Shown here: one piece after another, positions 42,144 to 45,351 of the stretch | Position numbering within the stretch: the first letter of the stretch is position 1 | How the letters are laid out: each line of letters starts with the position of its first letter | Assembly (NCBI GenBank): GCA_025361485.1 | Contig: JANYLA010000125.1 | Span: forward strand, 1-45,351 | DNA: 45,351 bases | Origin: Bacteroidales bacterium | GTDB taxonomy: Bacteria > Bacteroidota > Bacteroidia > Bacteroidales > Tenuifilaceae | Reading direction: 5' to 3' | Notes under the pieces: generated by a model | Told to the model about the DNA's origin: nothing | What the model saw: the letters and a program-made list of their open reading frames with translations, nothing else | Database searches by the model: none | Program-made: the position numbers and the translations under genes

Positions 42144-42542
42144 TTAAACACCTAAAATTCTCCTCAGTTCTCCGATTTGGCTATTCCATAAAGAAATAGC
42201 ATCTTCAACATCTTCATTGTCATCAAGCTGTTCGATAACCTGAAGTGAAAGTTCGCGGGTAAGTTCGTGGGACGATAGTTTGAAAGAAAAGAAATTTTTG
42301 GGATTAGAACCTTCTTTTAGCCATCTGAATTTTATGCTCTTATTCTCTTTTTTTTCAAGTAATTCTGCCTTTTGTTGAATATCATCCCAAACAAAAGTGA
42401 ACGTTTTCCCCGATAAGTTAACATCATCGGCAAACCATTCTGCCAACCCCGATGGGGTTGATAATCTATTAAACAATAAATGGGGTGAAGTATTTATTGT
42501 AAACTCTAATTCAATTCTATTTAATATGCTTACATCTTCCAT
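42144..42542 (-). CDS. START-like (SRPBCC/AHSA1-type) domain protein
   Basis: 132 aa, a single helix-grip domain with no signal peptide. FTINTSPHLLFNRLSTPSGLAEWFADDV and VWDDIQQKAELLE match the Bacteroidota START-like family, and the acidic C-terminal part EQLDDNEDVEDAISLW plus the final helix close the hydrophobic pocket. It binds an unknown small hydrophobic ligand or acts as a co-chaperone-like protein, as in Aha1. It is upstream of and on the same strand as the LptF/G gene, with 84 bases between. Confidence 0.85.
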   Translation of the reverse strand: MEDVSILNRIELEFTINTSPHLLFNRLSTPSGLAEWFADDVNLSGKTFTFVWDDIQQKAELLEKKENKSIKFRWLKEGSNPKNFFSFKLSSHELTRELSLQVIEQLDDNEDVEDAISLWNSQIGELRRILGV

Positions 42543-42774
42543 GATTTGTACTATAACTCTTATCAGAAAAATTTAATTGTTTTTACATTCTATTTTACTT
42601 CTTATGCAAGATATAAAAAAAAGAATGCGAAGCACTTATATTGAAATTCTTTTTATTAACAATGTGTTTTGTTTTAGTTTTTTTTATTAGTAATAACTGT
42701 TTCGATGGGTTGGTTATTGTTATTAACCCATTTGTTTTCGTTGAATAAAAACTTGGTGGATAAAAATTATTTTA

Positions 42775-42782
42775 TACTTTTG
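42775..42782 (+). promoter_or_regulatory. Bacteroidota promoter of the tRNA pair
   Basis: -7 TACTTTTG at 42775-42782 with a -33 TTG at 42753-42755 and 19 bases between: a full-consensus arrangement for the Bacteroidota primary sigma factor. It drives both the tRNA remnant and tRNA-Met. Confidence 0.7.
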
Positions 42783-42797
42783 CACCTCAATTCTGAT

Positions 42798-42870
42798 GGC
42801 GAGGTAGCTCAGCTGGTTAGAGCGTCCCGATGCAAATCGGGAAGGTCGGCGGAGCAAACCAAGAAAGAAT
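42798..42870 (+). pseudogene. tRNA-like remnant, partial duplicate of tRNA-Met
   Basis: The first 27 bases (5' acceptor strand, D arm, base 26), with two bases before them, are identical to the tRNA-Met 82 bases downstream. The anticodon arm is replaced by a perfect 7-bp hairpin, TCCCGAT/ATCGGGA, capped by a GCAA tetraloop. The remainder (GGCGG, AGCAAAC, CAAGA) does not form a T-stem, and no complementary 3' acceptor strand exists. TCAATTCT at 42787-42794 and AGAATTGA at 42866-42873 form an inverted pair around it. It cannot be a normal tRNA; it could be a remnant of duplication or element excision, or a tRNA-like RNA. Confidence 0.65.
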
Positions 42871-42879
42871 TGACATAAT

Positions 42880-42953
42880 GGCGAGGTAGCTCAGCTGGTT
42901 AGAGCGCATGATTCATAATCATGAGGTCGCCGGATCATCCCCGGCTCTCGCTA
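42880..42953 (+). tRNA. tRNA-Met (anticodon CAT), elongator type
   Basis: A 74-base cloverleaf: acceptor GGCGAGG/TCTCGCT with G1-T72 and G7-T66 wobbles, D stem GCTC/GAGC, anticodon stem CATGA/TCATG with loop TTCATAA (anticodon CAT), variable AGGTC, T-stem GCCGG/CCGGC, discriminator A. The T-loop reads ATCATCC, so T54 is an A. CCA is not encoded. G1-T72 and the absence of three G-C pairs in the anticodon stem rule against initiator tRNA. A lysidine-modified tRNA-Ile2 also has CAT, so elongator Met is likely but not proven. Confidence 0.9.
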
Positions 42954-42965
42954 CTTAAAGATGAG

Positions 42966-42999
42966 GCACTTGTACCTTAAATGGCGCAGGTGCTTTTTT
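42966..42999 (+). terminator. Intrinsic terminator after tRNA-Met
   Basis: 7-bp stem GCACTTG/CAGGTGC (one G-T wobble) with a 14-base loop, followed by TTTTTT, 12 bases after the tRNA. Confidence 0.65.
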
Positions 43000-43135
43000 A
43001 ATTGCCCCAAGGATTTGCACCATAACACTGTAGTTAAAATCTCTAATTATCTTTTAAAGAAATTTCTTATCCATTAATTAGCCTTAACGGATTTGATTAA
43101 GTCCTTTCTCCTCCAAAGAGCCGATTGGCTATAGT

Positions 43136-45351
43136 TTAATCTTCTTCTATCAATAAAGCCGGCCAAAATGATGGATTTATAAGATAAGTAATATTCTGTT
43201 GATGCTTTTGAATAAAACCTTTAAGTAATTTCATATTGTAATTCATTGAATAAATATACTTGGTTTCTTCGTTGTCCTTTTTAATACCGAGGAACCCATA
43301 CCATAACAAAAGATCAATTATTTTTTCTAAGTGTAAACTATTATCATTTTTCTCTAAGATGATTTTATGCAAGTCATCCTTATTTAGATTAGCTTTTGCA
43401 GAAATAAAATTATAGAGAACATCACCAATTTCAGGAAATATATCTCTTATTTCATAATCAATATCTGTTAACAAATCAGAAGAAAAAGCTTTGATTCCTT
43501 TTTCAATATCCTCCTTCTCTATAATGGTATGATTCAAATTTACAGCATTACTTTTACACTGATTTATTAGGTTAATTAAAAATCTTGGTCTCATTAACGA
43601 ACGTTCAATTAAATACTCAGAAGTTTCCTCACCCTTGTAATGACTTACGATTATTTTCCTCCAAATTTTGTCAAAATCCTCATATTCTAAGTCGAGGCTT
43701 GATATTATTCTTAATTTAATTATTTCTCTCAATAAATCAGTATCAGTCCAATCGAGTAATTCTTTTGCTTCCTTTTGCCTGTCTGAAGTTTCACTAACTA
43801 ACAATTCATAGACATCATTTCTTAGAAAAATAATTGGATAAACTTCAATTTTTTGCTTTACAAATTCTCTCTGGATTTTTCTAGCGGCATCAATTAATGT
43901 ACGAATAATTATTAGATCTTCATGCTGTAATCCTGAAGACGGCCAACCTTTGTCAATATTATCAAATAGTAACCAGACTTTATTTTTATTCTTTAGATAT
44001 TTAGCTAAATTTTGTCTTAATTTCCATATGTCTGATTTGTAAAGTAAATCAGTTATCTCTGGGGTTGAAAGAGAAATATTAGTTGCATTACCATACTTTT
44101 GATTAAAGGATTTGGCCAAATTTTCCATCAACTTTGACATCCTTTCAGAAAAGTCGCCTTCTGTTAAATAGTCTTCTGCTTTATAGGTTTCTTCTAACTC
44201 TCTATATGGCTCATATAGTTCGGTTGTTACAATATGTTTTTTTCTGTCAGTAATCAGGATTTTATGACAAATTTCAAGAAGTAATATATACTCCCAAAAG
44301 GCCATTATAGTATGTTGAAAAGTACCTTCTTTCAGGAAGTTAAAAACTAATTCTTTGAATTTAATTAGTTTATAACCTTCTGGTTTTAAGTCAAGAACGA
44401 CATTGTTATGCTTATTCCTTTCTTTGTCTCTAATTTGTAAAAATATTGCTGTTTTTCCCGAACCTTTTCGACCTATAACTAATTGAGTTTCACCTCTAAG
44501 TGCTTTGCTATAGGAATCTGTTTTAAGATAGTATGCTTGTAAATTACGCATTTCGTTTTCTGCGGAAGAAGCACCAAAATCAAGTTTTTGTAAAAAAGTA
44601 GTTTTTCTAGATTTGTCCAAATCTTTGCCTTCTTGAAAAGCTTCAGCAATATTACCAGCAAAATCTGCTATGATATTATCAATATCATCTATTGCATAAT
44701 AAACATTTACAAAATCTCTGTAATCAATAGGTACTGGATCATCGCCTTGTTGAAGTAAACATATTTCTTTATTCATGCCATAAGCTAGACCTGAAATGAA
44801 TGCTGCCCTAATATTATGAATCTCATAATCATTATTTTCTTTTGATAATAAACAAACGACTATACCATAAGATTGAGCCACTTGATTAATAGCATCATAA
44901 GCTGATAACCTCGGTGTTTCATTAGGATCGAAACTTCTATAAATATATCTTGCTTTCTTAATTCTTGCTGTAATCCTAATGGCGTAATCAGTTTTATATT
45001 TCTGTTCTAATAAATATAGTGGAGCTTTTGTATTTATGCTCAAATTATCGCCAAGTAAAGTATTAGATTTTAATTCAGACAAGATTTTAAATAATTCATC
45101 TGAATTTGAATATTCTTTATAACCAATGGTGTCAAATATTCCTACTTCTCTAATAAAAGGGTTTTGTTCTTTAATAGAGTTATTTCTTAATAATACTATA
45201 GGTTTGCCTTTACCAATTGCATAACCAATCTCATAAGTTACATTAAAATTCAGAGTTGTAATATCTGCAATTAGGATATCATTTTCATCAATCGCTTGAT
45301 GAATTTTTCTTGTTACAAAAGCACCTATTATATCGAGTTCTTTCCAAGGTG
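43136..45351 (-). CDS. Tandem NDT/TIR-like domains fused to a Sll1717-like P-loop ATPase (start outside window)
   Basis: The frame is open to the window edge. Residues upstream of the TTG at 45082 continue in frame as a recognisable domain, so that TTG is not the start. The partial protein is about 738 aa. The first domain contains ILIADITTLNFNVTYEIGYA then GKPIVLL, the pattern of nucleoside 2-deoxyribosyltransferase/TIR-like nucleotide-processing domains, with the Glu of YEIGYA in the catalytic position. A second, weaker copy reads GIVVCLLSKENNDYEIHNIR then GLAYGMNKEICLL. The ATPase follows: Walker A GRKGSGKTAIF, Walker B VWLLFDNIDKGW. It is visibly more AT-rich than its neighbours. It is a candidate nucleotide-depleting or signalling defence protein. 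Confidence 0.75.
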   Translation of the reverse strand, partial: PWKELDIIGAFVTRKIHQAIDENDILIADITTLNFNVTYEIGYAIGKGKPIVLLRNNSIKEQNPFIREVGIFDTIGYKEYSNSDELFKILSELKSNTLLGDNLSINTKAPLYLLEQKYKTDYAIRITARIKKARYIYRSFDPNETPRLSAYDAINQVAQSYGIVVCLLSKENNDYEIHNIRAAFISGLAYGMNKEICLLQQGDDPVPIDYRDFVNVYYAIDDIDNIIADFAGNIAEAFQEGKDLDKSRKTTFLQKLDFGASSAENEMRNLQAYYLKTDSYSKALRGETQLVIGRKGSGKTAIFLQIRDKERNKHNNVVLDLKPEGYKLIKFKELVFNFLKEGTFQHTIMAFWEYILLLEICHKILITDRKKHIVTTELYEPYRELEETYKAEDYLTEGDFSERMSKLMENLAKSFNQKYGNATNISLSTPEITDLLYKSDIWKLRQNLAKYLKNKNKVWLLFDNIDKGWPSSGLQHEDLIIIRTLIDAARKIQREFVKQKIEVYPIIFLRNDVYELLVSETSDRQKEAKELLDWTDTDLLREIIKLRIISSLDLEYEDFDKIWRKIIVSHYKGEETSEYLIERSLMRPRFLINLINQCKSNAVNLNHTIIEKEDIEKGIKAFSSDLLTDIDYEIRDIFPEIGDVLYNFISAKANLNKDDLHKIILEKNDNSLHLEKIIDLLLWYGFLGIKKDNEETKYIYSMNYNMKLLKGFIQKHQQNITYLINPSFWPALLIEED

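What the first reader, a model, noticed from the sequence alone, without database searches (positions are those of the whole stretch)
43136..45351. tRNA-linked tandem NDT/TIR-like + Sll1717-like ATPase gene, cut by the window edge
Two copies of a nucleotide-processing-type domain (the first with the catalytic Glu pattern) precede a P-loop ATPase with clear Walker A and B. Enzymes that cleave nucleotides and are gated by an ATPase are a recurring anti-phage design. The gene is AT-rich and lies directly beyond a tRNA gene, a common integration site.
Basis: partly seen in the sequence, partly recalled or inferred. Interest (0 to 1): 0.55.

Follow-up and report, generated by a model that had tools for sequence, protein, structure and literature searches.

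The report
Mobile nucleotide-cleaving immune-type ATPase gene
A bacterium carries, inside a DNA element inserted at a tRNA gene, a single large protein that joins a predicted nucleotide-cutting enzyme to a molecular switch; it looks like an unstudied kind of self-contained anti-virus protein, related to an unexplained gene in common laboratory E. coli.

Summary
Window 43136-45349 (- strand) is one open gene, cut by a contig end: two NDT/TIR-fold domains and an ATPase that passes the NCBIfam Sll1717 cut-off (1.2e-100). Contig C123 supplies the missing start.

The same genome holds an exact 51-base copy of the tRNA-Met 3' end on contig C99, without the tRNA 5' half, beside a tyrosine integrase. 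C99's far side carries DUF4349 and POT genes found beyond this tRNA in some relatives. So the gene is most likely the first cargo gene of an integrated element; the contigs are not joined.

Domain 1 keeps a Glu aligned with that of DNPH1/Rcl deoxynucleotide N-hydrolases; domain 2 has the same fold without it. The ATPase resembles Cdc6/Orc, TnsC and STAND proteins. Relatives ride plasmids, predicted prophages and a Tn7-like locus. The ATPase also occurs alone in phages, with TIR, and with a weakly PD-(D/E)XK-like tail as Tn1000's third gene.

Best reading (inferred): a one-protein defence or inter-element conflict switch that cleaves nucleotides. A neighbour test for known defence families gave no support.

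The parts
43136..45349 (-). 3' 737 codons and stop of the tandem-NDT / Sll1717-ATPase gene; the first 31 codons lie on contig C123 (L004 3036-3128)
45050..45349 (-). domain 1 (residues 1-100 of P0001): NDT/DNPH1-like, with D29, N34, N36, E40
45230..45232 (-). codon of invariant Glu40, aligned with the Glu of the YELG motif of DNPH1/Rcl
44615..45037 (-). domain 2 (residues 105-245): same fold, no such Glu; conserved E144, R147, N179, R181, D209, R211, D212
43430..44593 (-). AAA+/STAND-like ATPase core (residues 253-640)
44450..44473 (-). Walker A, GRKGSGKT (residues 293-300)
43943..43963 (-). Walker B, DNIDKGW (residues 463-469)
43151..43429 (-). C-terminal part (residues 641-733), winged-helix-like by its place in the Cdc6/Orc match (inferred); no repeat domain follows
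42880..42954 (+). tRNA-Met gene, insertion target
42904..42954 (+). attL: 51 bases repeated exactly at C99:6708-6758 (attR) beside a tyrosine integrase
42955..43135 (.). element end between tRNA and gene, with a stem-loop and T-run unlike the terminator that follows the copy on C99
   Evidence: terminators read by eye
45314..45351 (.). 38-base exact overlap with contig C123 (reverse strand), which carries the gene start and hsdM/S

Best explanation
The gene is cargo of an element integrated by a tyrosine recombinase into the 3' end of tRNA-Met. It encodes a single-protein, ATPase-gated nucleotide N-glycosidase. At rest, the Cdc6/STAND-like ATPase with its C-terminal winged-helix-like part holds the protein inactive. 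On infection or entry of foreign DNA, the ATPase senses a trigger (identity unknown; DNA or a phage protein) and the protein oligomerises. The NDT-like domain 1 then cleaves the glycosidic bond of a nucleotide, stopping replication of the invader, probably at the cell's expense. Because domain 1 appears to have the Tyr plus Glu pair of NDT/DNPH1 enzymes, a 2'-deoxynucleotide is a likelier substrate than NAD+. Domain 2 is a copy without the Glu that binds a ligand or shapes the assembly. Shown: architecture, predicted fold, conserved residues, att repeat and integrase, spread over unlike mobile vehicles, purifying selection. Inferred: continuity of the element, trigger, oligomerisation, substrate, anti-phage outcome.
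For: Domain 1 D29, N34, N36 and E40 do not vary in 54 of 54 rows of A3; N36 and E40 also hold in the 60 rows of A2, which include the distant clade. The motif occurs in 79 of 83 intact matches; 3 of the 4 misses are matches that begin after it, and L145 has Asn for the Asp. In a profile match to DNPH1/Rcl (E 4.8e-5) the YELG Glu aligns with the invariant Glu. Structure: domain 1 to DNPH1 Z 9.4, 2.2 A over 112 residues; domain 2 to DNPH1 Z 10.8, 2.6 A over 116, and to the N-terminal part of TIR-STING Z 10.5, 3.6 A over 135. ATPase to 2fna, Cdc6/Orc1, TnsC, CED-4, Dark, Avs5. Relatives of the ATPase with other effector-type domains: N-terminal TIR_2 in L189 and L190, weak PDDEXK_3 in the tail of the Tn1000 gene and its Pantoea homologue. 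Full-length copies on plasmids, predicted viral contigs, beside a Tn7-like locus and here at a tRNA element. ATPase-only copy after the lysin gene of a Lactococcus phage. Type I R-M genes within 8 kb in 5 of 80 genome loci, against 0 of 19 control stretches. Literature: retron-Eco1 forms NAD+-hydrolysing filaments (title in a reference list) and NDT-like retron genes exist (legend); SIR2-STAND Avs5 hydrolyses NAD+ (abstract).
Against: No enrichment of known defence families among neighbours: 23 PADLOC families in 136 neighbours against 45 in 136 control genes, at E <= 1e-10. The Type I R-M count has a control of only 0.22 Mb against 1.20 Mb, and 3 of its 5 loci supplied queries; 0 of 7 viral and 0 of 8 plasmid loci had a hit. 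No PADLOC model fits beyond weak partial hits. There is no repeat-type sensor domain. In the distant clade D29 and N34 are not strictly kept. The Asp of DNPH1 (D80) is Val/Ile in 39 of 40 relatives, so the chemistry need not match DNPH1. PF05014 stays below gathering. Retron-Eco1, whose effector I recall as NDT-like, acts on NAD+ by the title of its paper, against the deoxynucleotide guess.
Confidence: 0.6

Rival explanations
1. It serves the mobile elements themselves: a Cdc6/TnsC/MuB-like DNA-binding ATPase that controls transposition, maintenance or competition between elements (exclusion of a second element), with the NDT domains modulating it.
For: The ATPase's structural neighbours include Cdc6/Orc1, TnsC and MuB; an NDT-less relative is the third gene of Tn1000 beside its recombinase and transposase genes; others lie on plasmids, beside tnsD/tniB genes and in phages. 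The Tn1000 gene just misses the Pfam ORC-CDC6-like cut-off (26.9 against 27 bits).
Against: The conserved catalytic-type residues of domain 1 have no role in this reading; the carriers use unlike mobility systems; the most frequent neighbour family, which reads as a serine recombinase, is in only 7 of 87 loci.
Confidence: 0.2
2. It is an accessory guard of Type I restriction-modification: it fires when the neighbouring hsd system is inhibited or lost.
For: It follows an HsdM-HsdS fusion gene on C123 with the same orientation. HsdR or HsdM-like genes lie within 8 kb in 5 of 80 genome loci (L061, L063, L065, L091, L140), three of them HsdR by Pfam (L061, L063, L140), and in 0 of 19 control stretches.
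Against: 75 of 80 genome loci, 7 of 7 viral and 8 of 8 plasmid loci show no such gene at E <= 1e-10 in the DNA held. The hsdM on C123 is interrupted.
Confidence: 0.11
3. It is a nucleotide-salvage or DNA-precursor clean-up enzyme regulated by an ATPase, without a conflict role.
For: NDT and DNPH1 are nucleotide-metabolism enzymes.
Against: Patchy occurrence (2 full-length in 395 genomes of the phylum, own included), spread over several phyla and on plasmids, no full-length copy in 39 relatives.
Confidence: 0.07

Closest known systems
NCBIfam NF047389, P-loop ATPase, Sll1717 family
   Same: The ATPase half matches the whole profile far above the cut-off.
   Different: The family name says nothing of function or of N-terminal domains; no paper in the library holds the word Sll1717.
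DNPH1/Rcl (2'-deoxynucleoside 5'-phosphate N-hydrolase) and nucleoside 2-deoxyribosyltransferases
   Same: Fold of both N-terminal domains; catalytic-type Glu in domain 1; Tyr after strand 1 in 37 of 40 rows.
   Different: Asp80 of DNPH1 replaced by Val/Ile; tandem with a Glu-less copy; fused to an ATPase.
Avs5 / SIR2-STAND and other NLR-like single-protein defence systems
   Same: N-terminal nucleotide-cleaving-type domain plus a similar ATPase fold (9jap Z 10.9, 4.7 A over 274; PMC12931631 abstract).
   Different: NDT instead of SIR2; no C-terminal repeat domain, which Avs5 needs (section heading seen).
Swarozyc (DUF4062 TIR-like NADase)
   Same: A TIR-like domain with distant similarity to NDT acting in phage defence (PMC13174449: abstract, passages, section 8).
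   Different: Different domain family; this protein has no DUF4062 hit.
Tn1000 (gamma-delta) third gene, WP_000422420
   Same: Same ATPase family; RefSeq also calls it Sll1717.
   Different: No NDT domains; a C-terminal extension of about 218 residues with a weak PD-(D/E)XK signal.

Membership tests
NF047389 ATPase_Sll1717 | score over the curated cut-off of 75 bits | tested here: met
   337.8 bits, full profile 1-454
PF05014 nucleoside 2-deoxyribosyltransferase | score over gathering (28.8 bits) | tested here: not met
   21.9 bits for the cut protein, 24.2 for L061 with its start
PF05014 nucleoside 2-deoxyribosyltransferase | catalytic Glu in the E-x-G-x-A stretch | tested here: met
   Glu in 54 of 54 rows, aligned with that of DNPH1
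DNPH1/Rcl | Asp80 of the human enzyme | tested here: not met
   V 22, I 17, T 1 of 40 at that column
STAND / Avs-type defence NTPase | effector-type domain and P-loop ATPase in one protein | tested here: met
STAND / Avs-type defence NTPase | ATPase of the STAND class proper | tested here: inconclusive
   fold matches to Cdc6/Orc, TnsC and STAND proteins lie within 3 Z of each other
STAND / Avs-type defence NTPase | C-terminal repeat sensor domain | tested here: not met
   window protein ends after residue 737; in the 83 intact relatives at most 30 residues follow the matched part, one running off its contig
Known PADLOC defence system | full-length match to a PADLOC model | tested here: not met
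   only partial weak hits, best 1.9e-6 over residues 260-313
Integrative element at a tRNA gene | direct repeat of the tRNA 3' end | tested here: met
   51 of 51 bases identical, C99:6708-6758, no tRNA called there
Integrative element at a tRNA gene | tyrosine integrase next to the att copy | tested here: met
   L250 6910-8178, Phage_int_SAM_5 2.3e-18, Phage_integrase 5.8e-14
Integrative element at a tRNA gene | continuous DNA from attL through the gene to integrase and attR | tested here: inconclusive
   C119, C123 and C99 are separate contigs; C119-C123 overlap by 38 bases, C123-C99 have no link

The most novel reading that the evidence does not exclude
The Sll1717 ATPase is an origin-recognition-like (Cdc6/Orc/TnsC) sensor that detects foreign DNA and drives interchangeable effectors: tandem NDT (here), TIR, or a PD-(D/E)XK-like nuclease as in Tn1000. 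It would be a defence class separate from Avs/NLR proteins, with a predicted 2'-deoxynucleotide-cleaving member, and one of its members has sat unnoticed in DH5alpha and other cloning strains.
Probability: 0.35. Interest if true: 0.75.

Novelty: new variant of a known kind. Interest (0 to 1): 0.56.

Why it matters
If true, it adds a compact, repeat-less sensor to the NLR-like defence proteins and a deoxynucleotide-directed effector beside the NAD+-depleting ones. It also gives the third gene of the classic transposon Tn1000, present in DH5alpha, DH10B and XL1-Blue, a testable role: laboratory strains used to measure phage defence may themselves carry a member of this ATPase family.

Tried and rejected
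Many control hits are methyltransferase models. Families, not proteins, are counted, and the control is one phylum only, so the test is weak; it does not support enrichment.

Conserved operon partner: none seen. The largest neighbour family is in 7 of 87 loci; the nearest upstream ORF is on the same strand within 100 bases in 9 of 78, the nearest downstream in 11 of 81. I raised that rival slightly (0.10 to 0.11).

tRNA beside relatives: within 1 kb in 5 of 60 loci scanned (L070, L071, L087, L090, L099), so a tRNA is not a general feature.

The viral fold search gave nothing useful. Foldseek's best PDB rows for the N-terminal model were unrelated two-domain proteins; DNPH1 came at E 8e-3 with probability 1.00, and the closer comparison is VIA-align. 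No DNA relative of the full-length Brenneria gene was found in the E. coli collection by blastn.

Papers: the listings of searches showed no description of a tandem-NDT Sll1717 ATPase; I read passages or sections of few of the papers listed, and the library lacks most subscription journals. Two searches and the passages of PMC6340991 name tnpX of Tn1000 without a function in what I saw. The eLife 2020 survey of NTP-dependent conflict systems has no 'deoxyribosyl', 'Cdc6' or 'Sll1717' in its main text. The retron-Eco1 and the 2015 nucleotide-conflict papers are not held.

Full report
OBSERVATION. The window is the whole of contig C119 of its genome. Frame 43136-45349 (-) is open for 737 codons to the contig end. 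Its ATPase half is NCBIfam ATPase_Sll1717, 1.2e-100; its N-terminus matches Pfam NDT weakly. The last 38 bases of the window recur on contig C123 (3,221 bases, L004). Read from there, the gene starts at L004 3036 with 31 further codons. The closest relative, L061 (77%), has a similar start of the same length in one piece. The last 57 bases of C123 match window 45033-45089 in the wrong orientation, so that end is chimeric or a minority inversion. Full length is about 768 residues.

ELEMENT. tRNA-Met lies at 42880-42954. A search of 26 genomes with window 42144-43136 showed an exact 51-base copy of its 3' end elsewhere in the window's own genome, at C99:6708-6758. ARAGORN finds no tRNA on C99, and identity stops at both ends of the 51 bases. 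On one side of the copy lie a tyrosine integrase (L250 6910-8178), a 268-residue ORF, a helix-turn-helix protein and a DUF5906 protein. On the other side, behind four or five ORFs, lie a DUF4349 gene and a POT transporter gene. In 12 relatives read around their tRNA-Met, DUF4349 lies beyond the tRNA in 6 (G004, G005, G008, G009, G014, G015), at 80% identity in G004, and POT in 2 (G004, G005). The other 6, among them G002 and G003 of the same genus, show neither in the stretch read; two of those stretches were under 4 kb. In G004 and G009 the tRNA is turned round against its neighbours. The terminator after the copy on C99 resembles that after the tRNA in G008, while the window's tRNA is followed by a different one (read by eye). 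So C99 most likely carries attR and the old chromosome flank, and the window attL and the first cargo gene. No full-length copy was found in 39 relatives besides the own genome; 2 of 395 genomes of the phylum have it, the own genome and G213. The Sll1717 ATPase passes its cut-off in 14 of 395. C123 continues with a 148-residue protein without a Pfam hit and an HsdM-HsdS fusion gene whose 5' part is cut by a multicopy element that reads as the end of an IS transposase (by eye). The distance from C123 to C99 is not known.

RELATIVES. Plasmids: 141 records match, 13 over at least 80% of the query, up to 44.5% identical. Viral contigs: 37, of which 7 span both halves. Of these 87 loci, 83 have no stop in the matched frame. 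A tree of 59 rows puts the window gene with L061 (100/100), next to nine gammaproteobacterial genes (100/99). The gene of G213, a genome of the same class as the window's, sits in a deep second clade with Leptolyngbya and Leptospira plasmid genes of the same architecture. L062 (Telluribacter, 61%) was left out of the tree for a stop. That pattern fits horizontal transfer but is no proof. L061's copy follows hsdR and an SMC-like gene, and tnsD and tniB genes of a Tn7-like transposon lie beyond it. So the same gene travels in unlike vehicles. Type I R-M genes were found within 8 kb in 5 of 80 genome loci (L061, L063, L065, L091, L140), 0 of 7 viral, 0 of 8 plasmid and 0 of 19 control stretches; the control is small, and three of the five loci supplied queries.

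ARCHITECTURE. A scan with the ATPase core shows proteins of 478-600 residues with short extensions in the 30 other viral loci; a phage case (Lactococcus phage CAP) lies after the lysin gene. L189 and L190, over the Sll1717 cut-off, have N-terminal TIR_2-like domains: 29.9 and 27.8 bits against gathering 28 when the piece is scanned alone; in the whole protein L189 scores 25.7 and L190 is not listed. The Tn1000 third gene on F (L053) and a Pantoea homologue (L059) carry a C-terminal extension of about 218 residues with weak PDDEXK_3 hits (0.039 and 0.12, below cut-off). RefSeq calls the Tn1000 gene Sll1717 too; 126 of 5,426 E. coli genomes have a match and 115 hold at least 80% of it, DH5alpha, DH10B and XL1-Blue among them. 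The ATPase is thus found with several effector-type domains.

STRUCTURE AND RESIDUES. The AlphaFold2 model of the window protein has pLDDT 85.3 and pTM 0.86. The ATPase half resembles 2fna (Z 13.8, 5.4 A, 322 aligned), Cdc6p (13.6, 9.3 A, 320), Cdc6/Orc1 2qby (12.9, 6.5 A, 328), TnsC 9g0f (12.7, 5.5 A, 288), CED-4, Dark and Avs5; such Z values do not single out one class. The N-terminal model, from L061 with its complete start, has pLDDT 89.4 and pTM 0.89. Domain 1 matches DNPH1 (Z 9.4, 2.2 A, 112); domain 2 matches DNPH1 (10.8, 2.6 A, 116), CMP N-glycosidase MilB (10.7, 3.0 A, 124), TIR-STING (10.5, 3.6 A, 135) and plant RRS1 TIR (9.9, 3.4 A, 127). D29, N34, N36 and E40 of domain 1 do not vary in 54 of 54 rows; with the distant clade added, N36 and E40 still do not, D29 and N34 stay at 90% or more. 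Domain 2 lacks the Glu but has its own conserved polar set and changes least against L061 (dN 0.115, domain 1 0.168, ATPase part 0.161), which suggests that it has a function. A Tyr follows strand 1 in 37 of 40 rows. In Thoeris work (PMC11204291, section 11 read) a Tyr bonded to the catalytic Glu is noted in NDT and DNPH1, enzymes highly specific for 2'-deoxy substrates; that is why I expect a deoxynucleotide rather than NAD+. That the Tyr here is the equivalent one is inferred from its place after strand 1. The Asp80 of DNPH1 is Val or Ile in 39 of 40, so this is not DNPH1 itself.

MECHANISM AND LIMITS. The best reading is an ATPase-gated nucleotide N-glycosidase acting in defence or conflict between elements. 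The trigger, oligomerisation and substrate are inferred. A neighbour test for known defence families gave no support. No function in print was found in the searches named under Tried and rejected. The verdict is a new variant of a known kind, with location and mobility well supported and the function open.

Noticed in passing
L053 4303-6399 (F plasmid, Tn1000): The third gene of Tn1000 is an Sll1717 ATPase with a C-terminal extension of about 218 residues that weakly matches PD-(D/E)XK; 126 of 5,426 E. coli genomes have a match, DH5alpha, DH10B and XL1-Blue included.
   Followed up: partly
   Followed up: partly
G000:C7, L252 6234-13517: A second Type I R-M locus in the same genome (hsdM, hsdS, hsdR by Pfam) has a 201-residue DUF4062 (TIR-like) gene at L252 8789-9391 between hsdS and hsdR.
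   Followed up: partly
L004 1-141: End of a multicopy element, reading as an IS transposase C-terminus, cuts the hsdM gene of the island; the same bases occur at 7 other places, 6 of them contig ends.
   Followed up: partly
window 45021-45032 and 45314-45325: 12-base inverted repeat (92%) inside the gene, 281 bases apart; C123's wrong-way 57-base tail starts at it, so either a chimeric read or a minority inversion.
   Followed up: partly
window 42798-42824: Copy of the first 27 bases of the tRNA-Met just upstream of it, in a remnant that ARAGORN does not call; a similar 27-base fragment stands beside the tRNA in G009.
   Followed up: no
L004 2507-2950: 148-residue protein between hsdM/S and the gene, no Pfam hit at E <= 0.01; by eye it recalls CheD.
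   Followed up: no
L070 10472-11725; L141 11732-12259; also L071, L135: Pseudomonas and Brenneria relatives stand near a protein with an NDT-like motif (by eye) and a TPR-S domain, and near a ThsB_TIR protein; the two Pseudomonas genome copies lie next to tRNA-Pro.
   Followed up: partly
L056 5875-8268: Rhodococcus plasmid relative is split by an in-frame TGA and sits between a TIR-domain gene and a DUF4062 gene.
   Followed up: no
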